Notes under the pieces: model-generated
The model's database searches: none
What the model was told of the DNA's origin: nothing
The model's input: only the letters and a program-made list of their open reading frames with translations
Source: Catellatospora methionotrophica
Lineage (GTDB): Bacteria; Actinomycetota; Actinomycetes; Mycobacteriales; Micromonosporaceae
Assembly (NCBI RefSeq): GCF_011297335.1
Contig: NZ_JAAOTJ010000001.1
Location: forward strand, 620,001 to 684,000
Length of the DNA stretch: 64,000 nucleotides
Direction of reading: 5' to 3'
In this document: in pieces, positions 53 to 15,514 of the stretch
Layout of the letters: every line of letters begins with the position of its first letter
How positions within the stretch are numbered: the first letter of the stretch is position 1
Program-made: the position numbers and the translations under genes

Positions 53-117
53 GATGATCCTCCGATTGAGGGGTCCGGGTGGCATTCAAAGATGGCGATG
101 CGATAATCTCTACGTTC

Positions 118-147: not shown

Positions 148-199
148 GCGTTGGTGTATAGTCGAACCGTAGACATGAGATGAACGGGAGGTCTGAGCC

Positions 200-775
200 G
201 TGACTGAGCTAGTACCGCGGCGGGTCATCGACGATGTGGCGACGTTGAAGGCGCTCGCTGATCCGATCCGCATGGCGATCCTGGAGCTGGCGATGGCCGA
301 GCCAGCGCGCACCTGGACGGCCAAGGAGTTCGCCGGCATCGTCGGCATCTCCCCCACCAAGATCTATTACCACCTCAACCAGCTGGAGCAGCACGGTCTC
401 ATCCAGATCAGGGACACCCGGGTGGTCAACGGCATCATCGAGAAGCAGTACGGCACGGGCCAGCTCGACCTGACCTTCAGCCGACGCACCGAGGACGGCG
501 GCGAGAGCCTGCGTGCCGCGGTGTGCACCCAGTTCGACATCACCCGCGACGAGATCGACCGCGGCCTGGCCGCGTCCACGATGTCCATCGAGGCCGACGC
601 CGACGAGACCGAACGACTCCTGGTCAGCCGCTCGGTGGCCAGCATCGAGCAGAGTCAGATCGCGGAGTTCCGCGCGGAGCTGCTCAACCTGGTCCGCAAG
701 TTCGAGAAGAGCGCCGGTTCGGGCAGCCACCCGTTCGGCATGCTGGTCGCCCTGCATCCGACCCGGAGCGAGTGA
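200..775 (+). CDS. ArsR-type winged-helix transcriptional regulator
   Basis: A 191-residue regulator. Residues about 13-85 form a winged helix of the ArsR/HTH_20 type: an LKALADPIRMAILELAM helix, then a recognition region with KIYYHLNQLEQHGLI and a beta wing. The C-terminal half is helical and probably dimerises or senses a ligand. There is no metal-binding Cys cluster, so metal sensing is unlikely. A GGGAGG site precedes the GTG start. It is divergent from a secreted-protein gene whose promoter carries an imperfect inverted repeat, which suggests local control of that gene. The signal it responds to cannot be read from sequence. Confidence 0.8.
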   Translation: MTELVPRRVIDDVATLKALADPIRMAILELAMAEPARTWTAKEFAGIVGISPTKIYYHLNQLEQHGLIQIRDTRVVNGIIEKQYGTGQLDLTFSRRTEDGGESLRAAVCTQFDITRDEIDRGLAASTMSIEADADETERLLVSRSVASIEQSQIAEFRAELLNLVRKFEKSAGSGSHPFGMLVALHPTRSE

Positions 776-941
776 CCACAGCTCTCCCCGGCCGGCCGGC
801 CGTCCCCGCGGTCGCCCGCCCGAGCGCCGGTGCGGGAACAAACTCGCCCGGCAGCGCCTGATCCCGCGACGCCGACACGACCCCGCCCCTGACCGGCGGG
901 GCCGTCGGCGTGCCCGGCGACGTCAGGTCGGGGCGGTCGCG

Positions 942-1256
942 TCAGGTCGCGGGGCGGTCGGCGGCCGGGAAGTCCCAGCGCAGCGCGGCGCACGAGGTCT
1001 GGTAACGCCGCTCGCGGCGGCCCTGCGCAGTGCGGCGCACCACCACCCCCACCAGGTCCTCGGTACGCAGGATCTTCAGGTGGTAGTGCATCAGCGTCAG
1101 CGCGACACCGGTGCGTTCGGCCAGGTCACGCACGGAGAACGTCTCCTGTGGATGGTCGAACAGGATCGTCAGCACGGCCAGGCGCACGGTGTCGCTGACC
1201 GCACGCAGCTCGCTCACACCGGCGATCCTGCGCAGGCTTGGCGCGGGGTCGGACAT
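942..1256 (-). CDS. Small ArsR-type helix-turn-helix regulator at the end of the thiopeptide cluster
   Basis: A 104-residue protein that is almost entirely a winged-helix domain: LRAVSDTVRLAVLTILFD, then RDLAERTGVALTLMHYHLKIL as the helix-turn-helix, then a basic wing. It lies on the same strand as the biosynthetic operon, 141 bases beyond its last stop and beyond a strong hairpin (1367-1393), so it is probably a separate transcription unit. A role in controlling the thiopeptide cluster is plausible from position only. Its nearest rightward neighbour is the other ArsR-like gene, with which it is convergent. Confidence 0.75.
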   Translation of the reverse strand: MSDPAPSLRRIAGVSELRAVSDTVRLAVLTILFDHPQETFSVRDLAERTGVALTLMHYHLKILRTEDLVGVVVRRTAQGRRERRYQTSCAALRWDFPAADRPAT

Positions 1257-1366
1257 GACGTTCCCCTCCCGTCAGAGGTGCGGCGCGCGCTCAGATGTGC
1301 CACACTGTGTTCAGCGATGCCCTCGGTCCTCCCTGACGGTCGGGGGCTTTTTCGCGTCCGGCCTGG

Positions 1367-1393
1367 CCACGGGCCCGGAAGCCGGGCCCGTGG
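1367..1393. terminator. Hairpin after the thiopeptide operon
   Basis: A perfect 12-bp inverted repeat (1367-1378 and 1382-1393) with a 3-base loop begins five bases beyond the stop of the last biosynthetic gene on the minus strand. It lacks a clear U-run, as is common for actinobacterial terminators. A second weaker GC hairpin followed by a T-run (about 1320-1352) reads on the plus strand. Confidence 0.55.
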
Positions 1394-1397
1394 CGGT

Positions 1398-3167
1398 TCA
1401 GCCGTCCGGCGAGCGCCGCTGCCGTCCGACCGGCATCAGGTAGATCGCCACGTTGTCGATGCCGTCGAGCCCGAACACCTCGTGCGCGACGTCGTCGTAG
1501 AAGCCGCCGATCATGCCCAGCGACAGCCCCGTCGCCGCCGCGACCAGTGACAGGTTCTGGGCGAGATGCCCCGCTTCGGCGGTGGCGAAACGCAGCGCGC
1601 GCATGCCGTAGCGCGGCCGCAGCCGCCCCAGTTCGACGTAGAGGGCGAGCATCGCCGGCATGGCCGAGATGTCGATCCCCTCGTACGCCGAGGTGTTGTC
1701 CGGCTGGAACCAGGTCGAGGTCGCCAGCAGGTCTACATCGGAGGGCGTCCCGCCCATCCACCACAGTGTCCGGTCGGCCGGGTCGACGTGGTAGCAGCCG
1801 GGGTCCACCCCGGCGACGTCGCGTACGACCAGCCGGAGCTTCGCCACGTAGCGGGCGCCCGCACTCGGGTAGGGCCGGTGCCCGAACCGGTAGGGCGTGC
1901 CGTCGGGCAGCACGATCTGCTCGTGGTGCGAGATCGCGTGGGCGCTCCACAGCAGCGTTCCCAGCTCCTCGGCCACCAGCGGGCCGGTGACCGCGCCCCG
2001 TGCGGAGCGGCGGGTGCGCAGCACGTCGGCCAGCGGCAGCCGTGGCGCGTCGTGGGCGGGCAGCACCACCGGCGGGCGCATCGCGCGCATCCGGAACGCG
2101 GGCGGGCCCTCGACCTCACGTGGCGCGTGGTCGCTCGCGCCGCCCAGCAGGAACTTGCTGGCCTCGTGGTAGCGGCGGTCGGCGGCCTGTGCCCCGTCGG
2201 TGAAGAACGGGGCCAGGCCCTCGGGAGCCAGTGCCGTGCCGGCGACCAGCCAGCACACCGAGCGCTCCTCGTCGGGGGTGATACCGAGGCGGTTGAACAG
2301 CATGTGCAGCTGCGAGGCCCATACGCCCAGCCAGCGGCCGGGGGTCGCGGCGGGCTCCAGCGCGGCCAGGCGCTCGTTGGCCTCCCGGACCACGGCGGCC
2401 CAGGCGGTGACCGGTGAGCGGCGGCCGTCGGGGTCGGCGGTGATCGCCGCGGCGGTGCGGGCCCAGCGCTGGTTGAGCGTCCCGGCTTGTTTGGCCAGCA
2501 CCTTGGACGTGCGCTCCTGCATGAGCGCGGTCGGCAGCATGGCGACCTCGGTGTTGAACCGCCAGGCCCCGGCGTGGATGCGCAGCCAACGGGCGCTGCC
2601 GAGCCGGTCCAGGCCCAGCGCCATCGCGGTGGCGATGGTCAGCTCGGTCGCCGCGGCCAGCCGCGCCCGGGGGTCGGCGGTGGCGGCGACGATCCGGGTG
2701 GCGACGTCAGAGCTGCGGCAGAAAACCTCCTCGGCGATCGGCAGCGCGTCGGCTCCGCCGTAGCGGGGCGTCTCGGCGACGTACGCGATCTCGCGCACCT
2801 CGCCGTGCTCGTGCCAGCCCGCCTTCGACTGCGCGGCGGGGCCGCCCAGCGCCTGGTAGTAGGTGCTGCCGTCGAGCGCCGCCGGGGTGAACGGGGCCTC
2901 GGCCAGCAGGCGGCCCAGTTCCTCGCGCAGCCACTGCGCGGTCGCCGGGTCCGCGCCGCGCAGGCGCAGCCGCAGGTGCGGACCGCCCTCCCAGTAACGG
3001 ATGTAGAACCAGTCGTCGATGCGCTGCTCGCGGCGCAGCCGGTCGAGCAGGGTGGCGACGGTGCGGCACAGGAAGTCGTCGAGGTCACCGGCGGGCCAGT
3101 AGGCGAAGCAGTGCAGGCTGAGCCATACCCGGGCGTCGCTGTGCCGGTCAAGGGTGGCGGCGGTCAT
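1398..3167 (-). CDS. LazF-like fusion: glutamate-elimination domain plus azoline dehydrogenase
   Basis: A 589-residue fusion. Residues about 1-310 match the thiopeptide-type bacteriocin biosynthesis domain (split LanB elimination domain), opening with VWLSLHCFAYWPAGDLDDF and WFYIRYWEGGPHLRLRLRG. It would remove tRNA-donated glutamate from Ser/Thr to leave dehydroamino acids. Residues about 330-589 are a SagB-type FMN nitroreductase (RTRRSARG, RPYPSAGARY, then an RFATAEAGHLAQNLSLVAAATGL helix), which oxidises azolines to azoles. The same fusion is known for lactazole LazF. The ATG overlaps the upstream stop (ATGA), indicating translational coupling. It is the last gene of the operon. Confidence 0.88.
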   Translation of the reverse strand: MTAATLDRHSDARVWLSLHCFAYWPAGDLDDFLCRTVATLLDRLRREQRIDDWFYIRYWEGGPHLRLRLRGADPATAQWLREELGRLLAEAPFTPAALDGSTYYQALGGPAAQSKAGWHEHGEVREIAYVAETPRYGGADALPIAEEVFCRSSDVATRIVAATADPRARLAAATELTIATAMALGLDRLGSARWLRIHAGAWRFNTEVAMLPTALMQERTSKVLAKQAGTLNQRWARTAAAITADPDGRRSPVTAWAAVVREANERLAALEPAATPGRWLGVWASQLHMLFNRLGITPDEERSVCWLVAGTALAPEGLAPFFTDGAQAADRRYHEASKFLLGGASDHAPREVEGPPAFRMRAMRPPVVLPAHDAPRLPLADVLRTRRSARGAVTGPLVAEELGTLLWSAHAISHHEQIVLPDGTPYRFGHRPYPSAGARYVAKLRLVVRDVAGVDPGCYHVDPADRTLWWMGGTPSDVDLLATSTWFQPDNTSAYEGIDISAMPAMLALYVELGRLRPRYGMRALRFATAEAGHLAQNLSLVAAATGLSLGMIGGFYDDVAHEVFGLDGIDNVAIYLMPVGRQRRSPDG

Positions 3168-4312
3168 GGCAGCACCTCCGGCGGGGTCAGGTCGTAGGCG
3201 AAGTCGCGGGGGCGCGACCGGCCGATGAGCAGCAGGTAGAGGAAGTCTTCGGGGGCGGGGGCGGCGACGGCCGCCTCCAGGTGCGCCTCGTGCACGCTGC
3301 GGGCGGGCCGGCAGAACAGCCCGGCAGCGGCGGCGGCCGACCCGAGGTGCTGGCCGGTCGCGCCCGCGGCCAGCAGCAGCCGCCGGTACGCGGCCGCGCC
3401 TGCGGCGCGCACTGCCGTCGCGACGTCGGCGGTGATCACCCAGCCGATGTTCATGCCCGCGACGTCGAGCTTGTCGCGCGGGTAGCTGAACGCCTCCTGC
3501 ACCGGGTCCATGGTGACGTCGGCGTCGACGAGGTGAGTCGTGCCGCTGTCCACGGTGTGCAGTCCGTCGGCCAGGCCGGTGATACGGCACGCCACGGCCC
3601 GGTGACGCAGACCCGGCCAGGCGGCCGGGGAGCCGGTCGGGGGCCGGTGCGCCGCCTGGGACAGCGCCGCGAGGGTGCCCTCGGGCAGCGGGGCCGGATC
3701 GGCGCTGAGCCCGCGCGGGCCGAGCCCGGAGGTACGCCGCGCGCCCAGCCGCGATCGTGCCGCCTGCGCGTGGCCGGGCGGGGCGGGATCGGCGGCGCGC
3801 AGCGTCACGGTCAGCTCGCCGTCGTCGAGGTCCGTGGTCGCGTGCCAGCCGTGCGCCTGCGCGCTCTCGGCCAGCGCACCGGCCACGTGCCCGGCTTCCA
3901 GCCAGGTCAGCGCGTCGGCGAGGGCGGCGTACCCGGCGGGCAGCCGCTCGGGGTGCACGGTCAGCTCCAGCGTCACGGCGGTGCCCGCGCCGGCCGGGGC
4001 GTCGGCGTGACCGGCGAGCCGGTCCCGCACGGGGTCGACCAGCCAACGGCGGTGCCCCTCCACGACGGACACGTCGACGAGCCAGGCGGCGCGCGGCGAC
4101 GGGTAGGCGCGGTGCTCGTTGTAGGAGTTCCACGGCTCCCAGCGGCGGGGTGCCAGGGCCAGGCGCAGGATCGCGGCGGGCAGCGCGTACCGCTCGGGCA
4201 GCGCGGCCAGCGCGATGCCGGCACGGTCCGGCCAGGTGCGCGGGGGCATCGCGCCCGACCGTACGGACTTGCCGTGCGTCTGGTCCCACACGCGGGACAG
4301 GGTGGCGTCCAT
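3164..4312 (-). CDS. Divergent SagB/nitroreductase-like protein, extra enzyme in the cluster
   Basis: A 382-residue protein between the YcaO and LazF-like genes. Its N-terminal half carries WNSYNEHRAYPSPRAAWLVDV, a weak version of the SagB entry segment. Its C-terminal half has YRRLLLAAGATGQHLGSAAA, which aligns with the SagB flavin-site helix (canonical LLEAGHLAQNL), then FLYLLLIGR. It looks like two nitroreductase-like halves with weakened signature residues, so it may be an azoline or side-chain oxidoreductase, or a non-catalytic partner. I recall no equivalent in the minimal lactazole set. The start is an ATG 8 bases beyond the YcaO stop; the LazF-like gene overlaps its end by four bases. 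Confidence 0.65.
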   Translation of the reverse strand: MDATLSRVWDQTHGKSVRSGAMPPRTWPDRAGIALAALPERYALPAAILRLALAPRRWEPWNSYNEHRAYPSPRAAWLVDVSVVEGHRRWLVDPVRDRLAGHADAPAGAGTAVTLELTVHPERLPAGYAALADALTWLEAGHVAGALAESAQAHGWHATTDLDDGELTVTLRAADPAPPGHAQAARSRLGARRTSGLGPRGLSADPAPLPEGTLAALSQAAHRPPTGSPAAWPGLRHRAVACRITGLADGLHTVDSGTTHLVDADVTMDPVQEAFSYPRDKLDVAGMNIGWVITADVATAVRAAGAAAYRRLLLAAGATGQHLGSAAAAAGLFCRPARSVHEAHLEAAVAAPAPEDFLYLLLIGRSRPRDFAYDLTPPEVLP

Positions 4313-4320
4313 GGTGGTCC

Positions 4321-6216
4321 TCACGGGAACGGGTGGGGGTGGCGGGCGAGGTCGTCGTAGCGCAGGGGCGCCGCGGCCCGGCCGAGCCGGAACGGCACCT
4401 CCAGCAGCCGGGACAGGTCCCGGGTGCGGTGGTTGACGTGCCCGAACGTCATCGGCAGGCTGCCCGGCACGATCACCTTCGCCGCGTGCAGGCCGAGCCG
4501 GTCGCGCAGGCGCGGATCGGTCTGGTCCACGGCGACGACCTCCAGCCCGGCCCGGTCGAGCCGGGCGAGGGTGTCGGTGAGCAGCCGGGTCAGGTCGGCG
4601 GCGGGTGCGGGCTGCCCCGGCCAGACCTCGCGCCAGTCGTCGCCGCCGTCGGGGTCGTCGTCGCCGAGCAGGAAGTCGTAGCGCTCGCGCGCCTCGGGCA
4701 GGGTGTTCAGGGCGACATGGTCGTCGAGGGTGAGCACCAGCGCCGGGTCGTCGAGCATCGGCAGCAGCCGGGCCCGGTCCAGGTAGTGCGGCTTGGCCCG
4801 GACCACGTCGGGGGTGACGATCGCGTCGACGACGGCCTCGGCGGCCGCCGAGCGCATCGCGGCCCGGGGGTCGGGGTGCGCGCCGGCCGCGAACAGCGCC
4901 TGCGGCGCGCCGGAGGCCGGGTCGCGGTGCAGCACCAGGGCCAGCACCGTCGGCACGCCGAAGTCGTTGGTCGCGTCGAAGAACATCAGCCGGTAGCCCG
5001 CCGCCTCCAGGCGGTCGGCCAGGTGCGGCAGCACCGGGTCGTCGGCGGGGACCGCGACCCGCCGCAGCGGGGTGCGGGCGTACCAGGCCATCAGGAACGC
5101 GTCGCGTTCGGCGACCTCGTAGAGCCCGTAGAGGACCGCTTCGGTGAGGCTGTTGCCCAGCCCGCAGCCGTTGGAGCTCTCGTAGAGGAAGCGCGGTCCC
5201 GCACTGGCGTGCAGGCCCCAGTAGGCCACGTGCTCGGGCACGGTCGCGAGCCGGTCGCGGGTCAGCGACCAGCCGTGCACCCAGCCGGTACGCAGCTCCG
5301 GCGTGTACGCCTCGAGCTTGAACTCGGGATGGGCGAGGTACGCCGGATCGTGCAGCCCGAGCCGGGCCGGGTCGATCGTGGTCGCCGGGTCGAGTTCGGC
5401 ATACGACGCCGTGATCGCGGTACGCCGCCCGTGCGGGCGCATGCCGGTGTAGCGCTCGGCGGCCTCGAACAGCCCGACGCGCTCGGCGTCGGCGAAGGTG
5501 CGCGCCCGGCCGTACCCGGACTCCCGGATCGCACTGTCGCCCGACAGCTCCGCGGTGACCAGCGGCAGCGGCATGTTCTCGGTGCGGCGCAGGTGCGCCA
5601 CGGGCCCGTGGCGCCAGTCGAACAGCTCGGCCCGCAGCCCCTCCCGGGTGGTGCGCTCGTTGGCGGCACGGAACGCGTACGGGTCGGCGGCCGGGCTCGG
5701 CGGCAGCGTGATCCGCGCGTCCTGCGCGGTGTCGTCGGGCAGCGGCGCGCAGACCGCGCAGCCCTGCCGCGCCGGGCGCACCCGGTGCGTGGACACGGTG
5801 AGCCGGTCGGCGCGCAGCGCCAGCACCATGCCCTCGTGCCCGGCCGGGTCGGCCAGCGCCCCGGCGAGCAGCGCCGCGAGCGGGGCGAGCAGGGTCGGCG
5901 GCAGCAGCCCGCCGTACGCCAGGCCGGGGGTGCGCTGCGGCACCGTCGGCCCGAAGACGCTGAGCCGGGCGCTCTCGGCACACCCGAGGCAGACCGGCGC
6001 GTCTCGGTGCAGCACCGGTCCGATGAGGACCAGCCCACCGTCGAGCCGCACCGGCAGCACGGGCCGGTCCCCCGCGTACGCCGCCCGGCTGAGCTGCTCG
6101 GTCTGCTCCCGTGTCCAGTCCTGCAGCACCACGACCGCAGGCTGACCGACGCCGACCTGGTCGGGGTCGATGACCGGCAGGTCGAGGGCGCGCAGGGCGG
6201 TGGCGAGGGTGCTCAT
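4321..6216 (-). CDS. YcaO cyclodehydratase (LazE-like) for azoline formation
   Basis: A 631-residue YcaO protein that would use ATP to cyclise Ser/Cys residues of the precursor into azolines, working with the RRE protein encoded just upstream. The N-terminal region holds two Cys pairs (C76/C79 and C153/C156) likely to bind zinc. The YcaO domain spans roughly residues 200-630, with the Glu-rich ATP-site helices LFEAAERY and YEVAERDAF and the SSNGCGLG segment. It ends in PHPFP, the PxPxP C-terminus typical of azole-forming YcaO enzymes. The first AUG of the coupled ATGA overlap with the upstream gene was taken as start. Confidence 0.92.
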   Translation of the reverse strand: MSTLATALRALDLPVIDPDQVGVGQPAVVVLQDWTREQTEQLSRAAYAGDRPVLPVRLDGGLVLIGPVLHRDAPVCLGCAESARLSVFGPTVPQRTPGLAYGGLLPPTLLAPLAALLAGALADPAGHEGMVLALRADRLTVSTHRVRPARQGCAVCAPLPDDTAQDARITLPPSPAADPYAFRAANERTTREGLRAELFDWRHGPVAHLRRTENMPLPLVTAELSGDSAIRESGYGRARTFADAERVGLFEAAERYTGMRPHGRRTAITASYAELDPATTIDPARLGLHDPAYLAHPEFKLEAYTPELRTGWVHGWSLTRDRLATVPEHVAYWGLHASAGPRFLYESSNGCGLGNSLTEAVLYGLYEVAERDAFLMAWYARTPLRRVAVPADDPVLPHLADRLEAAGYRLMFFDATNDFGVPTVLALVLHRDPASGAPQALFAAGAHPDPRAAMRSAAAEAVVDAIVTPDVVRAKPHYLDRARLLPMLDDPALVLTLDDHVALNTLPEARERYDFLLGDDDPDGGDDWREVWPGQPAPAADLTRLLTDTLARLDRAGLEVVAVDQTDPRLRDRLGLHAAKVIVPGSLPMTFGHVNHRTRDLSRLLEVPFRLGRAAAPLRYDDLARHPHPFP

Positions 6217-7991
6217 GACGCCCACCGCACGACCGTGAAACCGACCGCCGACAGGGCCTGGCGCAGCTGCGCGGCCTGCTCGGTCATGCCGTCCTCGGCA
6301 CTGCTGAGCGTGCCGAGCCGCCACACGGTGGCCCGTGCCACCGGCGGCAGCGCCGCCAGCGCGGCCTGCAGCCGGTCCTCGCCCTGGTCGACTCCGGCGG
6401 GCCAGTGCCAGCCGTCCGACCACGGGGTGACGTCCTCACCGGCGGGCCGCCAGGCGGGCGCGGCCCCGGACAGGGTCACCGGGCCGCCGGGCAGATCCCG
6501 TCCCGCTTCCCGTGCCTGGGCGGCACCGACGGCGGCCAGCGCCGCGAACGCGACGGCGTCGGCGGTCCGCGCCTCGACGGCCCAGGCGACGACTTCGCCG
6601 CCGCAGGCGATCTGCGCGTGCACGGCATCGGGCGCGAGCCGTCGTACGTGGACCCAGGCGGGCTGGCCGAAGCGCAGCGTCAGCGCCTTCCACCAGCGGC
6701 GGGCCGCCGGTGAGCCGGTCCACTCGTCATCGGCGACCGGGGTCGTGGCCAGTTCCTCGATGGCGGCGTCGGCCAGGCGGCGCAGGGCCGTGCCGTGGGC
6801 GTGCCGGTCGTGCACACCGACCGCGAAGTGCCCGGCGTCGCCACCGGCGAGCACGGTCTCGGCCTGGCGCAGCACGGCGTCCAGCCGGGCGGCGTCGGTG
6901 CTGGCGCCCATGCCGACCACGCCGTCGGCGGCGGCCAGGGCGGCGGGCACCTGCGGCAGGCTGCCCGCGACCGGTTCGGCCAGCGGGCCGAGTTCGGCGT
7001 CGACCAGCGCCTCGATGCGGCGCAGCGCCTCGTCGGCGGTGTCCGGCGGCGCGGCGGCGGGGGCGGCGGCGGCCAGGAACGGGTGGTAGGTCAGCGACAG
7101 CGGGTCCAGCCGGGCCACCAGCACCGCCGGGTGCTCCAGCCGGGCCGGTGCGGGCTGCTGGTCTTCGTCGTGCAGCTCGGCGGCCTCCACGGCGGGATCG
7201 GCCAGCCCGGCGACCGCGCACACCAGCCGGTGCGCCGCGGCGGAGCCGACCAGCGCCGACAGCGCGTACGGGGCGGCGCTCGGGTCGGCGGTCCCGGCCA
7301 GCCGTCGGGTCACCTCGCGGGCCGACCAGAGCACCGAGTCGGCTGCGGACACCGGCACCACCATGCCGACCTCGCCACGGCAGCGCGCGGCCACCGCGAT
7401 CCCGGCGTCGGTGGACAGCACCAGGTCGGTGACGCCCTGCGCAGCGGGCGGCAGCGCGCCGGACACGACGTCGACGCCGATCCCGGCCAACGCGCGGGCT
7501 GCGGCCTCGGCGACCGGACCGGCTCCGGTCAGCCGCACCGGGGTGGTGCGCAGCCGCCGCCAGGCGTCGGCCGGGTCGGCCGCCACGGAACTCAGCCAGG
7601 CGCACACGTCGGCGGGCGGGGCCGCCGGGTCGGTGCCGTCGACCCAGCCCACGGGCAGGTCGACCAGCATGTCGTGCTCGCGCAGCTGCTCCAGCAGCAC
7701 GGTCACCGCGCGGACCACCTCGGGCCGGCCGGTGGGCGCGACGACCTGCTCGGTGGGCAGCCCCTCGATCAGCCGGGCCGACAGGATCTGCCACAGCTTC
7801 CACAGGCCGCTGCCGCCCTTGACGGTGAAGCTCGACGACCAGCCGCGGACGTGGACGCCCTGGGCGGTCGGCGTGGCGTGCACGATCGGGCGCAGCCGGA
7901 CCAGCGTGCGCGGGGCCTGCGGCGCGGGCTCCGGCGTCACCTGTGCGGGGGTGCGCTGCGTGGGCACGCCGCGCGTGGCGAGCGCGGTCAC
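6213..7991 (-). CDS. RRE-containing cyclodehydratase partner (LazD-like, ocin-ThiF-like)
   Basis: A 592-residue protein. Residues about 30-110 look like a RiPP recognition element: a three-stranded wing and helices with VRLRPIVHATPTAQG, SSSFTVKGGSGLWKLW and a helix ending in REHDMLVDL. This part would bind the precursor leader and present it to the YcaO enzyme. The remainder resembles an inactive E1/ThiF-like scaffold without a clear nucleotide-binding GxGxxG. Stops and starts overlap by four bases on both sides. The combination of separate RRE protein and YcaO matches lactazole LazD and LazE. Confidence 0.82.
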   Translation of the reverse strand: MTALATRGVPTQRTPAQVTPEPAPQAPRTLVRLRPIVHATPTAQGVHVRGWSSSFTVKGGSGLWKLWQILSARLIEGLPTEQVVAPTGRPEVVRAVTVLLEQLREHDMLVDLPVGWVDGTDPAAPPADVCAWLSSVAADPADAWRRLRTTPVRLTGAGPVAEAAARALAGIGVDVVSGALPPAAQGVTDLVLSTDAGIAVAARCRGEVGMVVPVSAADSVLWSAREVTRRLAGTADPSAAPYALSALVGSAAAHRLVCAVAGLADPAVEAAELHDEDQQPAPARLEHPAVLVARLDPLSLTYHPFLAAAAPAAAPPDTADEALRRIEALVDAELGPLAEPVAGSLPQVPAALAAADGVVGMGASTDAARLDAVLRQAETVLAGGDAGHFAVGVHDRHAHGTALRRLADAAIEELATTPVADDEWTGSPAARRWWKALTLRFGQPAWVHVRRLAPDAVHAQIACGGEVVAWAVEARTADAVAFAALAAVGAAQAREAGRDLPGGPVTLSGAAPAWRPAGEDVTPWSDGWHWPAGVDQGEDRLQAALAALPPVARATVWRLGTLSSAEDGMTEQAAQLRQALSAVGFTVVRWAS

Positions 7992-9166
7992 GACGCCACC
8001 TCGCTCAGCACCCGCTGCGGCACGGTCGTGCCGGGCTCATTACCTGCCCGCTGTGCGGCGAGGTAGCGGTCCAGCCGCTCCCGCCAGGTGATGCCGGTGA
8101 TCCGCTCGGCGGCCTGGCTGACCAGGTACGCGGCCAGGTAGCGCTCGGCGGGCTCCACGTCGCAGACGCTGAGCAGCTGGTACAGGATGTTGGTGGCGAA
8201 GCGGTACGTCACGAACTCCCGGGCGAAGGGCACCTTGTCGAAGTCCACCTTGCGCAGCTGCTCGTGGTACGCGCTGAACTCGGTGCGGCGCGTCGGGTCC
8301 CACTGGCGCATGGTGCGCTCGTCGCCGACCTGGCGTGCCCGGTCGGTGTAGGCCGCGCCCGGCACCAGCGGCAGCTCGTCGCGGTCGAAGGCGGGTTCGG
8401 CGACGGCGCGGGCGGCCTGGGTCCAGTCCAGCCACGACGCCTCCACCGGCGACTGCGCGCGGCCGTCGGCGACCCGGGTGACCAGGTCGGTGACCACGTC
8501 GGCGTGCCGGTCCCAGTGCCGGGCGTACGCCTGGCGCAGTGTGCCGTCCGGGTCGTGGAACAACAGGAAGTCCTCCAGGTGCGACAGGAACGACTGGTGC
8601 CCGGCGCCGAGTCCGAGCGGGTAGCGCCCGGCGTGCGCGGCCATCGACACCAGCAGCAGCCACACCCGCGCCCCGGCGACGTCGCCGCGCTGGCCCAGGT
8701 GCGCCAGCGACGCCGACACCGCGGGCACGCCCAGGCGCAGCAGCTCGTCGCGGCAGCGCACCGCGGCGGGCCCGCCGAGCAGCGACTCCAGCGCCGTGGT
8801 CTGCGGCAGCACGATGCTGACCGTGTTGTCCGGCCAGATCGGGGTGTACGGCGGCGGGATCAGTTCGACCCGGCCGGCTATCGCGGCCCGGTGCAGCAGC
8901 TCGGCGTCGCTGGTCACGGCCCGCGAGCCCCGGGAGACCAGGTGCGTGCGCAGCCGGTCGGCGACCAGCGCGGCCGCGTCGGCGACGGCGCCGGGCTCGC
9001 CGCGCAGGCAGATCCGCACGTGCGGGCCGTGCAGCCAGTGCCGTTCCAGGTGCGCGGCGACACCGGAGGTCTCCGCCAGCGCGGGCAGCACCGCGTCGCG
9101 CAGCAGCGGCGCCTTGACCGCGTCGTAGTAGTGGCAGATGACGTCCAGGCCATCGTGCGTGGTCAT
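7988..9166 (-). CDS. Pyridine synthase (LazC-like), thiopeptide macrocyclisation enzyme
   Basis: A 392-residue member of the thiopeptide-type bacteriocin biosynthesis family, with no LanB N-terminal domain and no fused dehydrogenase. It opens with ICHYYDAVKAPLLRDAVLPAL and GPHVRICLRG. In thiopeptide pathways the stand-alone copy catalyses the formal [4+2] cycloaddition between two dehydroalanines, forms the central pyridine and releases the leader. Its position between the LanB-like gene and the RRE gene equals lazC. The ATGA overlap with the upstream gene fixes the start. The family contains both elimination and cycloaddition enzymes, so the assignment leans on gene order and domain context. 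Confidence 0.82.
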   Translation of the reverse strand: MTTHDGLDVICHYYDAVKAPLLRDAVLPALAETSGVAAHLERHWLHGPHVRICLRGEPGAVADAAALVADRLRTHLVSRGSRAVTSDAELLHRAAIAGRVELIPPPYTPIWPDNTVSIVLPQTTALESLLGGPAAVRCRDELLRLGVPAVSASLAHLGQRGDVAGARVWLLLVSMAAHAGRYPLGLGAGHQSFLSHLEDFLLFHDPDGTLRQAYARHWDRHADVVTDLVTRVADGRAQSPVEASWLDWTQAARAVAEPAFDRDELPLVPGAAYTDRARQVGDERTMRQWDPTRRTEFSAYHEQLRKVDFDKVPFAREFVTYRFATNILYQLLSVCDVEPAERYLAAYLVSQAAERITGITWRERLDRYLAAQRAGNEPGTTVPQRVLSEVAS

Positions 9167-11802
9167 CGTGTACTTCCCTTCCGGTAGACCTCGGTGACGA
9201 GCTCGACGACCCGTCCGTCGGGGTTGCCCACGCCGGGCACGGGCAGCGCCTCCTCGACGCGGACGCCACGGTCGTGCCGTACCAGCAGCTTCGGCAGGTT
9301 GCGCAGGTGCAGCGCGTTGCCGAAGTCGACGTACTGCGGTTTGTGCTGGCCCATGTAGCGCTGGAAGTCGTCGGCGCTCTTCATGTCGCCGCCCTCCGGG
9401 CCGAGGAACAGCTCGGCGGGCAGCCCGTGCCGGGCCAGCCAGGCGGCGGCGGCCTCGGCGGGCACGTCGCCCTCGGCGGCCATCGCCGCCTTGAACGCCT
9501 CGACGTCGTCGGCAGGCACCCGCCACGACCGGCGCGCCAGGACGATGTCGCGGTGGCGCAGCCGGGGCCGGACCCGCACGTCGCCGACCTTGTGCGTGGG
9601 GGCCAGGTGGTTCAGCGACGCCAGGCCGCTGGACAGGTCCAGGTACAGCGGCACGAACCGGTCCGGCAGGATGAACGGCACCAGGAAACCCAGGTAGAGC
9701 ACGTCGAGGGTGTCACCGCTGGGCGCGTGGCGCAGGCGCACCTGGTCGGTGGCCGGGTCGTGGCAGATCTCCAGCTGGTCCACGGCGATCGAGCACCAGG
9801 CCGGGTCCTCGGCGATCTCGTCGTCGGCGACCAGCGGGTGCAGGTTGGCGTTGAAGCCGCTGACGGGCCGCCACTGGGCCACCCGCGCGCCGGGCCCGAA
9901 CCCGCGTTGCACCTGGGCGGCGACCTTGGCCCGCGCCTGCGGGGCGATCAGGTCGAGGAACCGGCTGGTGAACCTGCCCCAACCGCCGTAGATGTGGTTG
10001 AGCACCAGTTCGGTGCGCCCGGCCGCGGCGACCGGCTGCACGAAGAAGCTGTACGACGCGGGCCGTGCCCGCACCCAGCCCGGCAGCGCCTCGGCGGCCG
10101 CGCGGACGGCTTCGTCACTGAGGATCCGCTCGGCCGGATCCCCGGCGTTGTCGGCGTCGATGATCCGCATGACCGCGGCCCGCGCCTGCCCCAGCTCGAT
10201 CAGCTGCGGCGAGACGAGCTCGGCGAACCGCGGGTTGTCGCTGACCGTGCCACCGAGCGACAGCAGCCCGCCGGCCTGCCAGATCAGCCCCATCTCGTGG
10301 GCGAACCCGGCCAGGTCGGCACAGCGTCCGCCCGGCCCGTACAGCTGCACGAAACGGTCCCGGCTGAGCCGCCGGAAGACCAGGTACTGGTCGAACAGCT
10401 CGACGACCGGGCCGATCGCGGCTAGCCCCTCGGCGGCGTCACGGCCGTGCGCCGCACCCAGCCGCAGCGTGGTACGCAGGTTGACGTCCTCGGCCAGCAC
10501 CGGCGACTCCAGCCACTCGGCCCCGGACGCGGCGAACGCGGCGAGCCACGTCTCGCGCAGCGACGCCAGCGCCCCGACCCGCTCGGCCACCGGCAGCTCC
10601 GGGAACGCGGCCGTACGCGCGTCGATGTCACGCAGCAGCGCGGCGAGTTCGGTCTGGCCGTGCCCGTCGAGCCAGGCGGCGACGGTGGCCACCGCGTCGA
10701 CGTCCTGCGGGTCGGCGGGGTGGATCGCGACCAGCAGCCCGCCGTCGATGATCTGCCGCAGGTAGCGGCGGCCGACCTCGGCGGCGCGGGCACGGTCGCC
10801 CGGGAGCCGGTCGGCGATGGCCGCGACCAGCTCGGCGGGTGTCACCCCGGCCGGGCCCGCCGCGCGGACCAGGCTGAGCACCAGCGCGACCGGTGCGCCG
10901 TAGGCGAGGCTGACGTCCTCCTCCCGGGCGGCGACGATCCGGTCGCCGTAGCCCAGCGGGGTGTCGCGGCGGTAGTTGACCTTCCCGTCCACCACCCGGA
11001 TGTTGGGCGCCAGCCGGTAGGGCACCTGGTCGCGCAGCCGGGCCAGGGCCGCGGTGACGACCCTGACCAGCAGCGTGCGGTTGGCGCGGGCGACCGCGAC
11101 CGGTTCACCGGACAGCTGCTCGGGCTCGCCGGGACCGGCCCACTCGCCCCAGGCGACATAGGTGAACCAGGACAGCGGGCTGGTCTTGGAGTTGACGCGC
11201 AGCGCGTACCGCAGGGCGTTGTGCTCGCCCTTGCGGGCCCGCGAGTCGGGGTTGGCGCCGCCCGCGGCCGCGCGGTCGATGCCGCGCAGCAGGTCGGCGC
11301 CGGTGAGGGTGACCGCCTTACGCAGCGGGTCCGCGGCGCAGGTCGCCGCGAGCGCGGCCCGCTCGGCGGCCAGCGCCGAGGGGGCCGCGGCGGTCAGCGC
11401 CGCGCGGATCGCGGTCACCTCCGCCATCGCGTCCAGCCATTCCCGCAGCAGCGGGACCCGGTCCGGCAGGTCGCCGAGCACGTCGAGGATCGCCGGCCGG
11501 GGCAGGCGTCCGTTGTGGACGTCCCGCCGCAGGGGCAGCACGACCTTGCGGTGGTAGTCCGCGTCGTGCCCTGCGGCGCTGGCGTAGAGGGCGTCGGCCA
11601 GGTCACCGGCCGTCTCGGTCAGCCGGACGCGCAGCCGTACGAGCCGGGCCAGGCAGTCGCGGAACTCCGCACCGCCCTCGGGCACGGCGGGATAGGGCAG
11701 CGCGGCCAGCCGCACGAGGGCGTACGGCGCCAGCTCGACGGCCTTCCGGTCGTCGGGCCGCCCGGTCCGGGCGGTGGCGTCGGCGATGGCGAGCTCGGTC
11801 AT
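9163..11802 (-). CDS. LanB-like tRNA-dependent glutamylating dehydratase (LazB-like)
   Basis: An 879-residue lantibiotic dehydratase N-terminal domain protein. It would transfer glutamate from glutamyl-tRNA to Ser/Thr of the precursor; the separate LazF-like protein would then eliminate it. Recognisable parts are the start AVELAPYALVRLAALPYP, a central KTSPLSWFTYVAWGEW segment, and the C-terminal block with HLAPTHKVGDVRVRPRLRHRDIVLARRSW. The length and lack of an elimination domain fit the split thiopeptide type. The first of the modification genes, it overlaps the ABC permease stop by four bases, so exporter and enzymes share a transcript. Confidence 0.9.
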   Translation of the reverse strand: MTELAIADATARTGRPDDRKAVELAPYALVRLAALPYPAVPEGGAEFRDCLARLVRLRVRLTETAGDLADALYASAAGHDADYHRKVVLPLRRDVHNGRLPRPAILDVLGDLPDRVPLLREWLDAMAEVTAIRAALTAAAPSALAAERAALAATCAADPLRKAVTLTGADLLRGIDRAAAGGANPDSRARKGEHNALRYALRVNSKTSPLSWFTYVAWGEWAGPGEPEQLSGEPVAVARANRTLLVRVVTAALARLRDQVPYRLAPNIRVVDGKVNYRRDTPLGYGDRIVAAREEDVSLAYGAPVALVLSLVRAAGPAGVTPAELVAAIADRLPGDRARAAEVGRRYLRQIIDGGLLVAIHPADPQDVDAVATVAAWLDGHGQTELAALLRDIDARTAAFPELPVAERVGALASLRETWLAAFAASGAEWLESPVLAEDVNLRTTLRLGAAHGRDAAEGLAAIGPVVELFDQYLVFRRLSRDRFVQLYGPGGRCADLAGFAHEMGLIWQAGGLLSLGGTVSDNPRFAELVSPQLIELGQARAAVMRIIDADNAGDPAERILSDEAVRAAAEALPGWVRARPASYSFFVQPVAAAGRTELVLNHIYGGWGRFTSRFLDLIAPQARAKVAAQVQRGFGPGARVAQWRPVSGFNANLHPLVADDEIAEDPAWCSIAVDQLEICHDPATDQVRLRHAPSGDTLDVLYLGFLVPFILPDRFVPLYLDLSSGLASLNHLAPTHKVGDVRVRPRLRHRDIVLARRSWRVPADDVEAFKAAMAAEGDVPAEAAAAWLARHGLPAELFLGPEGGDMKSADDFQRYMGQHKPQYVDFGNALHLRNLPKLLVRHDRGVRVEEALPVPGVGNPDGRVVELVTEVYRKGSTR

Positions 11803-12554
11803 CCGTACCGCACCCCCTCGTCGCGCCGGAACGCCGTACGGGCGAGCCACGCGAAGAGCAGGGTCCACGCGGCGAGCACGCCGATGGTCCACAGAGGTGC
11901 GGCGATCCGGTCGGCCCGGCCGATGATGGCCAGCACCAGGTGCTGGTACTCATGGGTGGGCAGGTAGACCACGACGTCGCGGATCGCCGCCGGCAGCTGG
12001 CTGACCGGCACGAACAGCCCGCCGAGGAACGCCAGCAGCATGAACAGGATGTTGGCCACGGTCATCGCGCCCTGCGGCGGGAAGCGGTAGCCGATGGCCA
12101 TGCCGAGCAGGCCGAACGGGATCGCGCCGAGCAGCACCGCGCCGAGCCAGACCGGCCACTGCGCGAGCGGCAGTTTGAGGTCGGTGGTGAACACGGCGAG
12201 CGTCAGCAGGGGAATCCAGCTGACCAGGTTGAACCCGAGCACGTACAGCAGCCGCCCGGCGAAGCGGGACAGCGCCGGCAGGGGCAGCAGTCGCAGGCGC
12301 TGCTCCCAGGGGTTCTCGCGATCCGCGGCGACGCCGGCCGACAGGCTGACGATGGTCACGTTGAGCGTGGTGAACAGCAGGAACGGCGTGATGACGTACT
12401 CGCTGCCCAGGCCGATCTTGGCCAGGCTGGCGGCGTTGGTGTAGCCGAACAGCCCGAAGAAGACCAGCGGGAACAGCAGCGCGGGCACCCAGTAGACCGG
12501 CATCCGGCTGGTGTCGCGCAGGTGCGCGCGGGCGTGCAGGAGAACGTGGCGCAT
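11799..12554 (-). CDS. ABC-2 type exporter permease of the thiopeptide cluster
   Basis: A 251-residue integral membrane protein with about six predicted membrane segments (for example WVPALLFPLVFFGLFGY, YVITPFLLFTTLNVTIVSL and MTVANILFMLLAFLGGLFVPV) and the ENPWEQRL cytoplasmic stretch seen in ABC-2 permeases. It pairs with the ATPase encoded one base upstream and overlaps the LanB-like gene. By context it exports the mature thiopeptide and may give self-protection. The substrate is inferred from the operon only. Confidence 0.87.
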   Translation of the reverse strand: MRHVLLHARAHLRDTSRMPVYWVPALLFPLVFFGLFGYTNAASLAKIGLGSEYVITPFLLFTTLNVTIVSLSAGVAADRENPWEQRLRLLPLPALSRFAGRLLYVLGFNLVSWIPLLTLAVFTTDLKLPLAQWPVWLGAVLLGAIPFGLLGMAIGYRFPPQGAMTVANILFMLLAFLGGLFVPVSQLPAAIRDVVVYLPTHEYQHLVLAIIGRADRIAAPLWTIGVLAAWTLLFAWLARTAFRRDEGVRYG

Positions 12555-12555
12555 G

Positions 12556-13494
12556 TCAGGACACCCTCTCGGCGAGCTGCGGGACCGCGGGGCTGACCGG
12601 GATGACGGAGTCGCCGTCACCGGCGGTGATCGCCCGGATCGCCTCCTCCAGGCCGACGCGCTCGACGCGGATGCCACGGAACGGCACCCGGTCCAGCACG
12701 AGGGCGCGTACGGTCGCGTCAGGATCGGCGGTGTAGATCCTGGTGCGGTTGCCGAGCTGCTCGACGCGCTCGGCGGGGATGGTGGTGAAGGTCAGCGGCG
12801 ACGTCCCGTCGGGGACCTCGATGTCGACCAGGTGCAGGCCGACCTCGACGATGACGTCGTCGAGGGAACCGTCGCGGGCGACCTTGCCGCCGGCGATGAC
12901 GACGATGCGCCCGGCCAGGTGCTCGGCCTCGGCCATGTCGTGCGTGGTGAGCAGGACGCCTCGGCCGCCGGCCGACACCTCGGCGATGGCGGCCCACAGC
13001 CGGTCGCGGCTGTCGGCGTCGAGCCCGCTGGTGGGCTCGTCGAGGAAGAGCAGCTCCGGGTTGCCGATGAGGGCGGCGCCCAGGGCGACGCGGCGGCGCT
13101 GGCCGCCGGACAGCGTGCCGTTGCGCTTGTGGAGGAACTCCCCCAGGTCGAGCCGCTGCACGACCTCGTCGCGGGTCAGCGGCTTGGGGTAGTGCGCGGC
13201 GAGCAGGTCGAGGGTCTCGGCGACGGTGAGCCGCCACGGCAGCGCGGTGCGCTGGGGGGTGATGCCGATACGGGCCTTCACGGCGAGGTCGCCCGGGTCT
13301 CCCCCGAGCACCTCGACGCGGCCGCCGGTGGGGCGGCGCAGGCCGGACAGAAGTTCGATCATGGTGGACTTGCCGGCTCCGTTGGGGCCGAGCACGGCGG
13401 TCACTCCTCGCGACACCGTGAGCGACACGGCGTCGAGCGCGACCACTTTGCCGTATGTCTTGGTGACGTGTTCCAGTCGGGCTATGACTTCCAC
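12556..13494 (-). CDS. ABC exporter ATP-binding protein of the thiopeptide cluster
   Basis: A 312-residue ATPase of the drug-export (DRA/CcmA-like) class. It shows Walker A GPNGAGKST, Q-loop ITPQ, signature LSGGQRRR, Walker B LLFLDEPTSGLD and switch His in TTHDM. The last 90 residues form the accessory C-terminal domain common to ABC-2 exporters. It is the first gene after the precursor pair and the attenuator-like hairpin at 13516-13543, and only one base separates it from the permease. Likely to energise export of the cluster product. Confidence 0.92.
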   Translation of the reverse strand: MEVIARLEHVTKTYGKVVALDAVSLTVSRGVTAVLGPNGAGKSTMIELLSGLRRPTGGRVEVLGGDPGDLAVKARIGITPQRTALPWRLTVAETLDLLAAHYPKPLTRDEVVQRLDLGEFLHKRNGTLSGGQRRRVALGAALIGNPELLFLDEPTSGLDADSRDRLWAAIAEVSAGGRGVLLTTHDMAEAEHLAGRIVVIAGGKVARDGSLDDVIVEVGLHLVDIEVPDGTSPLTFTTIPAERVEQLGNRTRIYTADPDATVRALVLDRVPFRGIRVERVGLEEAIRAITAGDGDSVIPVSPAVPQLAERVS

Positions 13495-13515
13495 GGGTTC
13501 TCCCGGTGATGGAAA

Positions 13516-13543
13516 GAGGGGGCACGATGACTCGTGCCCCCTC
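13516..13543 (-). terminator. Attenuator-like hairpin between precursor genes and exporter/enzyme genes
   Basis: Perfect 12-bp stem (13516-13527 with 13532-13543) and 4-base loop, followed on the minus strand by CTTTCC. It lies about 90 bases past the second precursor stop and just before the ATPase start at 13494. Partial termination here would give more precursor than enzyme mRNA, a common arrangement in RiPP operons. The ATPase ribosome site lies just downstream of the stem. Confidence 0.6.
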
Positions 13544-13632
13544 GGATCGGTGCTGCGGGGTGGTTCAGACCCCGGTTTGCCCGGAGTGCCGGCAGTCCCT
13601 GACGCTGCCGTTCCGGTTCCGCTGGTAGCGGC

Positions 13633-13821
13633 TCAGGCGGCCACCTCCGGGTTGTCCCCACAGGAGGAGCAGCACGAGGAGCTGCCGCAGCACGACGACG
13701 CGCTGCTGCTGGAGCTGCCCGAGGAGGCACCGGTCTCCGGCAGGGCGGCCGAGTCGCGGATCGAGGTCACGGACAGGTCGTCCAGCTCGAGCTCGTCGAC
13801 GTTGAAGTCTTCGTTCGACAT
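13633..13821 (-). CDS. Thiopeptide precursor 1, lactazole-like leader with long Ser/Cys-rich core
   Basis: A 62-residue precursor. The acidic leader (residues 1-32) carries LSVTSIRDSAALPETGA, nearly identical to the leader end of lactazole LazA as I remember it. Cleavage after Ala32 would leave a 30-residue core starting SSGSSSSSASSCCG, with 14 Ser and 5 Cys in total and an unmodifiable tail GDNPEVAA. A Cys follows Ser directly at core positions 11-12, 17-18 and 21-22, so several second-dehydroalanine choices exist. A GAGGTG ribosome site sits 7 bases before the ATG. It lies downstream of precursor 2 on the same transcript. Confidence 0.88.
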   Translation of the reverse strand: MSNEDFNVDELELDDLSVTSIRDSAALPETGASSGSSSSSASSCCGSSSCCSSCGDNPEVAA

Positions 13822-13862
13822 TTGTATTCACCTCATTTCGATGGTCGGACGGTCGTGGACAC

Positions 13863-13891
13863 CCCGCCGCTGGAGAGGAGGAGGCGGCGGG
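13863..13891 (-). other. Small GC hairpin between the two precursor genes
   Basis: An 8-bp inverted repeat (13863-13870 and 13884-13891) with a 13-base purine/pyrimidine-biased loop lies 10 bases past the stop of precursor 2. It may protect the 3' end of the short precursor mRNA or weaken read-through to precursor 1. No U-run follows. Confidence 0.35.
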
Positions 13892-13900
13892 AAGCTCAGA

Positions 13901-14086
13901 TCACGTGACGTAGCAGCAGGAGCAGGACGCGTTGCCGCTCGTGTTGATCCACGAGGCCCCGGTCTCCGGGAGCGCCATGGAGTCCCGCATCGCCGTGACC
14001 GTCAGCGGTCCCAGGTCGAGGTCATCCATGTCGAACGCGATGTCGTACTCGGGGATCAGATCCCAGGTGGTCGATGTGTCGGCCAT
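13901..14086 (-). CDS. Thiopeptide precursor 2, lactazole-like (core SWINTSGNASCSCCYVT)
   Basis: A 61-residue precursor. The leader ends LTVTAMRDSMALPETGA and the predicted 17-residue core begins Ser-Trp, as in lactazole. Numbering the core from Ser1 puts Ser12-Cys13 where lactazole has the Ser12-Cys13 pair that, with Ser1, builds the pyridine, so the same ring size is expected. Cys11, Cys13 and Cys14 can become thiazoles. Ser6, Ser10, Thr5 and Thr17 may be dehydrated, cyclised or left. An AGGAGG site 6 bases before this ATG chooses it over an in-frame ATG at 14158 without a good site. It is the first gene behind the cluster promoter. Confidence 0.9.
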   Translation of the reverse strand: MADTSTTWDLIPEYDIAFDMDDLDLGPLTVTAMRDSMALPETGASWINTSGNASCSCCYVT

Positions 14087-14176
14087 TGTGTGCACCTCCT
14101 TCGGCGCTTCGCCCGGACCGTGGCCCGGCTCGTCGCTGTAGCTGTGTTTCACGTTCATGTTCTTAACTACGCTTGA

Positions 14177-14205
14177 GATTATTCAAACGTGCTCGGGAAG
14201 TCAAG
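14177..14205 (-). promoter_or_regulatory. Main promoter of the thiopeptide operon
   Basis: On the minus strand TTGACT (14200-14205), a 17-base spacer and TAATCT (14177-14182) fit a vegetative promoter. The expected transcription start near 14170 leaves an untranslated leader of about 85 bases before precursor 2. No other equally good promoter is seen before the enzyme genes. Confidence 0.65.
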
Positions 14206-14326
14206 CGCCTCGACCGTCGCTTGTGGAAAAAGTTCGCGCCAACCCCCGGCCCAGCCCCCTTTAGCGCCTGTGACCTGCGGCGGGCGATGCGAAGTGGAGC
14301 TTCCGCACGGCTGATACCGTTCCTGG

Positions 14327-15403
14327 ATGATCACGACGGTGCTGGGCGCCTACTACCACGGCGGTGACGAGCACACCGAAGCGATGGACGCACTGCCCAC
14401 CGGCCTGCTGACCCATGTCTTCTACGCGTTCGCCACGATCGAGGACGGACGCCTGGTGCTGCCCGAGCACGCGCCCGCGCACCTCGCGGCCCTCGCCGCG
14501 CGCAAGCGGGCCGACCCCGGCCTGCGGATCGTGCTGTCGGTCGGCGGCTGGGGCGCGGGCGGCTTCTCCGACGCGGCCCGCACGGCCCGGTCGCGGGCGG
14601 CGTTCACCGAGCAGTGCCTGGCACTGGCCGACGGCTTCGACGGCATCGACCTCGACTGGGAGTTCCCCGTCGCGGGCGGGCCCGCCGAACTGGTCCACCG
14701 GCCCGAAGACCGGCACCACGCCACGCTGCTGGCCCGGCAGCTGCGGCAGGGCCTAGGACCGTCCCGGCTGCTGGTCGCCGCACTGCCCGCGGGCCGGTTG
14801 CAGTCGGCGGGCCCGTACGACCCCGCCGACAGCTACGACCTCGCGGCGTTCGCCGACGTGCTGGACTTCGCCAACCTGATGACCTACGACTTCGGCACCG
14901 GCTTCTCCCCCATCGCCACCTTCAACGCGCCGCTGGACGAGGTGGCACAGGATCCGATGGAGGAGAGTCTGCGCCGGTGGAACAACGTCACCGGCGCGGT
15001 CGACTACTACGAGCACCACGGCGTACCCCGGGACAAACTCGTGCTGGGCGTGCCGTTCTACGGCCGCGGCTTCCAGGTCGCGTCCGCCGGTGACCAGGCC
15101 GGGCTGTACCAACCGCAGGTCGGCACGACCGACGTCAGCGACTGGCGTGACATTCAACGTGACCTGCTGTCCGACCCGGCCTGGCAGCGCCACCGCCACC
15201 CGGTGGCCCGCTCGCCCTGGCTCTACCACCCCGGCACCCGGACGTTCGTGAGCTACGAGGACGCCGCGTCCATCGAGGAGCGGGCCGCCTTCGCGGCGCA
15301 ACGCGGTCTGCGCGGCGCTTTCACCTGGCATCTCGCCGGAGACGACGACGAACACACCCTCCTCACCGCGATGACCCGCCCGTTCCGCCCCGACGCCGCC
15401 TAA
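14327..15403 (+). CDS. GH18 chitinase-like glycoside hydrolase without a signal peptide
   Basis: A 358-residue family 18 hydrolase acting on beta-1,4-N-acetylglucosamine polymers or related glycans. The SxGG motif is at 71-74 (SVGG) and the catalytic DxxDxDxE is DGIDLDWE at 105-112, with Glu112 as acid. Further GH18 markers are NLMTYDF and the C-terminal GAFTWHLAGDD. No secretion signal, carbohydrate-binding domain or membrane segment is present: the protein starts directly with the first barrel strand. It therefore either acts inside the cell or uses an unrecognised export route. It is divergent from the thiopeptide promoter. Confidence 0.88.
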   Translation: MITTVLGAYYHGGDEHTEAMDALPTGLLTHVFYAFATIEDGRLVLPEHAPAHLAALAARKRADPGLRIVLSVGGWGAGGFSDAARTARSRAAFTEQCLALADGFDGIDLDWEFPVAGGPAELVHRPEDRHHATLLARQLRQGLGPSRLLVAALPAGRLQSAGPYDPADSYDLAAFADVLDFANLMTYDFGTGFSPIATFNAPLDEVAQDPMEESLRRWNNVTGAVDYYEHHGVPRDKLVLGVPFYGRGFQVASAGDQAGLYQPQVGTTDVSDWRDIQRDLLSDPAWQRHRHPVARSPWLYHPGTRTFVSYEDAASIEERAAFAAQRGLRGAFTWHLAGDDDEHTLLTAMTRPFRPDAA

Positions 15404-15415
15404 CGGCGTCCCACC

Positions 15416-15512
15416 CGCCCTCCTGACCGCCACGCCCTCCTGACCGCCACGCCCTCCAGGCCCCCCGCCCGCCGAGCCGCCAGGCCGCCCGCCCTCCAGG
15501 CCGCCCGCCCTC
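15416..15512 (+). repeat. Degenerate short tandem repeats
   Basis: The stretch after the GH18 stop has two near-identical copies of a CCTCCTGACCGCCAC-type unit (15416-15450) and two exact 16-base copies of CAGGCCGCCCGCCCTC (15481-15496 and 15497-15512). No open frame or regulatory role is evident; probably slippage-derived low-complexity DNA. Confidence 0.6.
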
Positions 15513-15514
15513 CA

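What the first reader, a model, noticed from the sequence alone, without database searches (positions are those of the whole stretch)
1398..14205. Lactazole-type thiopeptide cluster with two precursors, an exporter and an extra SagB-like enzyme
Seen: two short peptides with a lactazole-like leader end, and five enzymes in the same order as lactazole lazB-F, including the unusual fused elimination/dehydrogenase protein. Known (from memory): lactazole is a minimal thiopeptide system with one precursor and six genes. Here the cluster adds a second very different precursor, an ABC exporter and a divergent nitroreductase-like protein. The products are therefore likely new lactazole relatives.
Basis: partly seen in the sequence, partly recalled or inferred. 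Interest (0 to 1): 0.9.

Follow-up and report, generated by a model that had tools for sequence, protein, structure and literature searches.

The report
Two-precursor thiopeptide cluster with ancestral dehydrogenase
This bacterium carries an intact gene set for making two different ring-shaped sulfur-rich peptides of the lactazole type, and a gene that looks like an extra here seems instead to be an old part of the family that lactazole makers lost.

Summary
Window 1398-14086 (minus strand) encodes two thiopeptide precursors, an ABC exporter, LazB-F homologues in lactazole order and one more gene, X, between lazE and lazF. The genome is a Catellatospora; the same layout recurs in other Micromonosporaceae. 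Three readings change. (1) X is no local addition: on the LazF tree it needs only two changes, best read as losses in Lentzea and in the Streptomyces/Amycolatopsis clade that holds lactazole cores. (2) X is a two-domain SagB-like protein related to stand-alone dehydrogenases of other thiopeptide clusters. Its presence matches the cores: 48 of 48 precursors listed from X+ loci carry Ser-Cys-Cys; 0 of 55 entries from X- loci carry adjacent Cys. Two losses are few, so this is a lead, not proof. (3) By homology to lactazole, precursor A2 should give a 32-membered ring; A1 best fits Ser1/Ser17, a 47-membered ring, beyond the 26-35 range stated for known thiopeptides in 2020 (PMC7210931); Ser11 (29-membered) is a live rival. 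No product has been measured. New variant of a known kind.

The parts
13901..14086 (-). Precursor A2, 61 aa; leader ends ALPETGA, core SWINTSGNASCSCCYVT
   Evidence: core end ASCSCCYVT kept in 8 related loci (L079, L080, L082-L086; L112)
13633..13821 (-). Precursor A1, 62 aa; leader ends ALPETGA, core SSGSSSSSASSCCGSSSCCSSCGDNPEVAA
   Evidence: 13 further A1-like rows compared
12556..13494 (-). T1, ABC transporter ATPase (best NCBIfam hit the DrrA model, below its cut-off)
   Evidence: conserved in Micromonosporaceae clusters
11799..12554 (-). T2, ABC-2 permease
9163..11802 (-). B, LazB-like tRNA-Glu dependent glutamylation protein (Lant_dehydr_N)
   Evidence: LazB role from PMC7210931
7988..9166 (-). 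C, LazC-like pyridine synthase
6213..7991 (-). D, LazD-like leader-binding partner of the cyclodehydratase
   Evidence: Position and homology to LazD-position proteins; no Pfam match
4321..6216 (-). E, YcaO cyclodehydratase (SagD type)
3164..4312 (-). X, two-domain SagB-like nitroreductase-fold protein without the Lys of the Lys-Tyr motif; possible earlier GTG start at 4324
1398..3167 (-). F, LazF-like fusion of glutamate-elimination domain and SagB azoline dehydrogenase
942..1256 (-). ArsR-type regulator just after F, likely part of the unit
   Evidence: Pfam HTH_20; similar gene next to F in L025, L026, L082-L086, L112
200..775 (+). Second HTH_20 regulator, possibly associated
   Evidence: Pfam; similar gene within a few kb of F in L025, L026, L083 and, cut by the locus end, L082 and L085

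Best explanation
A lactazole-like thiopeptide pathway with two substrates. D and E turn Cys and some Ser of both cores into azolines, F's SagB domain oxidises them to azoles, B adds glutamate to the remaining Ser, F's elimination domain removes it to give dehydroalanine, C joins two dehydroalanines into a pyridine and releases the leader as its amide, and T1/T2 exports the product (inferred from reconstituted lactazole, PMC7210931, and from homology; none of it shown here; export is inferred from position only). A2 most likely closes Ser1 to Ser12 (32-membered ring), A1 Ser1 to Ser17 (47-membered; about 0.6 likely). X is an ancestral two-domain relative of stand-alone thiopeptide dehydrogenases that works with D/E/F on cores that carry Ser-Cys-Cys, most likely helping to oxidise or position the adjacent thiazolines after the pyridine serine (about 0.4 likely).
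Against: Only two changes of X on the F tree, so the match to cores is two events, not 65, and the root is a midpoint. X lacks the Lys of the Lys-Tyr motif in every row and has weak family scores. F keeps its motifs where X is present, so X is not needed to complete a broken F. The X of G563, G626, G669 and G328 scores only 75-87 bits against the X profile, not far above tandem dehydrogenases of other clusters (51-58 bits); they are called X by position just before F and by motif. Ser11 is also invariant in the A1-like rows. L114 (an X-like tandem protein, 136 bits, elimination domain separate) and L088 (SagB-like protein separate from the elimination domain) have cores without adjacent Cys. 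C is below the pyridine-synthase equivalog cut-off.
Confidence: 0.7

Rival explanations
1. X is not catalytic: a pseudoenzyme kept as a structural or docking partner, and its match to Ser-Cys-Cys cores is inheritance from two losses, not function.
For: Residue before Tyr128 is Gly, Arg, Tyr or Glu, never Lys, in the X rows; only two changes on the F tree; weak SagB score.
Against: 28 invariant columns in 19 rows, and HRxxP, Tyr128, E-x-GH, R-x-x-G and RPxR kept in all rows, even those at 75-87 bits; both losses go with absence of adjacent Cys.
Confidence: 0.35
2. A1 closes at Ser11 and gives a 29-membered ring with a long modified tail.
For: Ser11 invariant in 14 A1-like rows; residue 12 is Cys or Thr; known ring sizes are 26 to 35 (PMC7210931; PMC3917276 gives 26, 29 and 35).
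Against: His10 in L135 and Thr12 in 4 of 14 rows weaken the azole flanks; lactazole needed Ser10, Ser11 and Ser12 (Ala scan), which the window's A1 repeats as S15-S16-S17-C18 (residue 15 is Ala in 4 of 14 rows); S-C-C at 17-19 is kept 14 of 14, at 11-13 only 10 of 14.
Confidence: 0.3
3. X carries out another redox step, such as reducing a dehydroalanine, rather than acting on azolines.
For: Altered active site; F as the only dehydrogenase is enough for the azoles of lactazole (PMC7210931).
Against: Fold and alignment neighbours include peptide azoline oxidases (McbC, BmdC, ThcOx, tandem SagB), though general nitroreductases match too; the link is to Cys-Cys in the core.
Confidence: 0.15
4. The product is a linear azole peptide like goadsporin, not a thiopeptide.
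For: Some LazF-type loci have A-B-D-E-F without C (L040, L044, L049, L158).
Against: C is present and matches TbtD/PbtD; no C hit was found in those loci.
Confidence: 0.04

Closest known systems
Lactazole (laz) cluster of Streptomyces lactacystinaeus
   Same: LazB-F set and order, LazF fusion, Ser1/Ser12 spacing of A2 (PMC7210931). The laz DNA itself was not in hand; Streptomyces loci with lactazole-like cores and ALPExGA leaders stood in
   Different: Window has X, an exporter in the operon, a second precursor with a much longer predicted ring, Ser-Cys-Cys cores; outside the lactazole clade
Stand-alone tandem SagB dehydrogenases of other thiopeptide-like loci (L115, L116 here)
   Same: Two nitroreductase-like halves that align over the whole of X
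   Different: X is shorter, lacks the Lys of Lys-Tyr, and sits beside a second dehydrogenase in F
Lactazole-like clusters of Saccharothrix and Actinosynnema (L027, L028, L032, L039, L069, L071, L075)
   Same: A-B-C-D-E-X-F with Ser-Cys-Cys cores
   Different: Only 154-397 bases lie between the last precursor leader position and B, so no exporter genes there; different cores with shorter predicted rings
Tandem nitroreductases 3eo7 and 2ymv (solved structures)
   Different: 3eo7 is only 'putative nitroreductase'; no link to peptide maturation in the listing

Membership tests
Thiopeptide clusters | Precursor of thiopeptide type | tested here: met
   Both above Pfam PF19409 and NCBIfam NF033400 cut-offs
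Thiopeptide clusters | Pyridine synthase homologue | tested here: met
   Homology to TbtD/PbtD, E 2.2e-41 and 1.2e-7; below the equivalog cut-off; LazC itself is described as only weakly similar to TclM and TbtD
Thiopeptide clusters | Pyridine in the product | not testable with these tools
   No chemistry available
Lactazole-like group | Elimination domain fused to SagB (LazF) | tested here: met
   PF14028 142.8 bits and PF00881 46.2 bits in one frame
Lactazole-like group | LazB-C-D-E-F gene order | tested here: met
   X sits between E and F
Lactazole clade in the narrow sense | Enzymes inside the clade that carries lactazole-like cores | tested here: not met
   C tree: 26-row clade 100/98 excludes the window; F tree: 30-row clade 100/100 likewise
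SagB azoline dehydrogenase (X) | Family model cut-off | tested here: not met
   TIGR03605 15.1 bits against 78.4; 8 of 19 X rows match it at E up to 1
SagB azoline dehydrogenase (X) | Nitroreductase fold | tested here: met
SagB azoline dehydrogenase (X) | Lys-Tyr motif (recalled from the literature, not from a call) | tested here: not met
   Tyr128 kept, Lys absent in the X rows
SagB azoline dehydrogenase (X) | FMN binding and oxidase activity | not testable with these tools
   Needs purified protein

The most novel reading that the evidence does not exclude
A two-domain dehydrogenase, ancestral to LazF-type thiopeptide clusters, is dedicated to the adjacent thiazoles that follow the pyridine serine and was lost twice together with that motif, once on the way to lactazole; and A1 is the natural precursor of a 47-membered thiopeptide ring made by the same enzymes as a 32-membered one.
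Probability: 0.3. Interest if true: 0.75.

Novelty: new variant of a known kind. Interest (0 to 1): 0.55.

Why it matters
Lactazole-like clusters make up close to half of predicted thiopeptides (251 of 508, as stated in PMC7210931), with one characterised member at that time. If the X reading is right, lactazole is a reduced form, and a simple sequence rule (Ser-Cys-Cys in the core) tells which relatives need a second dehydrogenase; that matters for reconstituting them. If A1 closes at Ser17, nature already makes rings of a size reached so far, to my knowledge, only by engineering in vitro (up to 62-membered).

Tried and rejected
Considered and set aside: X as replacement for a broken F (F motifs intact); X as a recent local gain. 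Sequence search of solved structures with X alone found nothing at E up to 1; the profile found 3eo7, E 7.3e-7. No Rfam match at gathering score in 1-20000. Precursors were not found for L089, L090, Nonomuraea (L134/L042) or L151, all with X. Results against the reading: L114 and L088, clusters with a separate SagB-like protein (tandem and X-like in L114, only half matched in L088) and cores without Cys-Cys.

Corrected by hand this makes 25 of 25 clusters with X (window and L075 in, L133 out) and 0 of 40 without (L156, L159 out, L158 in). Absence of X was checked in whole genomes only for 12 of the 15 genomes and for G330, G426, G573 and G657; for the other X- loci it means absence in the locus. 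The F tree left out partial and doubled rows. In one search L085, L112, L152 and L154 were left out because their A1-like cores repeat listed ones, and the second precursor of L081 because it does not line up.

Literature: of PMC7210931 I read the outline, introduction, section 6, the first part of section 7 and passages; of PMC10634744, PMC12339860 and PMC3917276 passages; all others only as search listings. Searches bearing on novelty; no title or abstract start shown there speaks of a second SagB-like protein in lactazole-like clusters or of a natural ring above 35, but long lists were cut (for example 20 of 184), the one '38-membered' hit beside a thiopeptide mention is a macrolide, and the library lacks most subscription papers; the 508-cluster survey was not looked up.

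Full report
What is there. On the minus strand of window 1398-14086 lie, in order of transcription, precursors A2 and A1, ABC exporter T1/T2, and B, C, D, E, X, F. Both precursors pass the curated cut-offs for thiopeptide precursors. B, E and F pass theirs; C matches the pyridine-synthase model at E 2.2e-41 but below its equivalog cut-off, and finds solved TbtD and PbtD. D has no Pfam match, but stands where LazD stands and aligns with the same protein in the lactazole-like loci. X scores under every cut-off.

Where it is. The nearest named relative is Catellatospora coxensis (F 92% identical); its record and the unnamed same-genus genome G005 give matching X coordinates, so the window is taken as Catellatospora. 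In C. coxensis the cluster is split over two contigs (L025 and L079). C matched in 20 of 201 related genomes at E up to 0.001, many of them weakly. In Micromonosporaceae the layout A2-A1-T1-T2-B-C-D-E-X-F recurs in Hamadaea (L080/L026) and six genomes of one genus (L082-L086, L112), and with other cores in L081. An ArsR-type regulator follows F in Catellatospora, Hamadaea and those six as in the window.

Is X extra? Strong X (over 250 bits) occurs in 12 of 200 sampled Micromonosporaceae, and in 3 of 15 genomes behind other loci; the other 12, among them 3 Lentzea, have hits of 47 bits or less or none (one locus, L058, was not held). A draw of 394 genomes of the class gave F at E up to 1e-60 in 12; of 9 of these searched for X, G603 had it strongly and four genomes of one genus had a divergent form just before F. 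On the F tree of 68 rows, X (29 rows) needs two changes. The root is a midpoint; with it, X is ancestral and lost in the 9 Lentzea rows and in the 30-row Streptomyces/Amycolatopsis clade. An earlier C tree, labelled before all X were known, gave three. In Microtetraspora (L133/L051) and G603 (L155) two C-D-E sets lie side by side, one ending in X, one in F, with one B and one F in the stretches fetched. The Pseudonocardiales bin (L135/L136) and Nonomuraea (L134/L042) look similar but are cut by contig ends, and in L135 no E was found between D and X.

X and the cores. In the table, 24 of 24 X+ loci and 48 of 48 of their precursors have adjacent Cys, against 0 of 41 X- loci and 0 of 55 entries; all 48 have Ser-Cys-Cys in their last 40 residues. 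The dropped and doubled rows are listed under Tried and rejected; corrected, it is 25 of 25 against 0 of 40. The idea was written down; the later Microtetraspora, G563, G626, G669, G603, G426 and G657 results agreed with it (G330 and G573 repeated loci already seen). As it rests on two tree events, it is a strong lead only. L114 and L088 show that a separate SagB-like protein as such does not require Cys-Cys.

Rings. In lactazole, Ser1 and Ser12 form the pyridine and S1A, S10A, S11A and S12A abolish it (section 7 of PMC7210931). A2 keeps Ser1 and C11-S12-C13, hence 32 atoms. In 14 A1-like rows S17-C18-C19 is invariant with S or C at 16, and the window's S15-S16-S17-C18 repeats lactazole's S10-S11-S12-C13 (four rows have Ala at 15); Ser1/Ser17 gives 32 + 5 x 3 = 47. 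Ser11 is also invariant, but its flanks vary (His10 in one row, Thr12 in four). The paper states 26 to 35 for known thiopeptides and 14 to 62 reached in vitro.

Function of the products is unknown. Lactazole A itself shows no antibacterial activity (PMC7210931), so antibiotic action should not be assumed.

Verdict. The finding is real and mostly as described; the kind is known; the ancestral second dehydrogenase tied to Ser-Cys-Cys and the predicted 47-membered ring make it a new variant worth testing.

Noticed in passing
window 15512-15595: Near-perfect long palindrome (hairpin -61.1 kcal/mol, z -8.7) with 80 matches in the same genome, most places matching on both strands, so about 40 places, several at contig ends (40 of 151 candidates scored): a dispersed intergenic repeat family.
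   Followed up: partly
L133/L051 (G280), L155 (G603), L135/L136 (G282), L134/L042 (G281): Twin thiopeptide gene sets that seem to share one glutamylation protein and one fused F, one set ending in X and the other in F.
   Followed up: partly
L040, L044, L049, L158: LazF-type clusters without a pyridine synthase hit (goadsporin-like), which branch inside the lactazole side of the F tree.
   Followed up: partly
L032 1682-1921 and L071 1609-1887: Extra precursor-like peptides with a changed leader end and a short SCSCCSVETRA core.
   Followed up: no
L051, L152-L154: A1-like cores that begin with Thr instead of Ser at position 1, which would make the ring partner a dehydrobutyrine.
   Followed up: no
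window 14327-17252: GH18 chitinase-like gene and a MurJ gene beside the cluster; the chitinase is also next to the cluster in L079.
   Followed up: no
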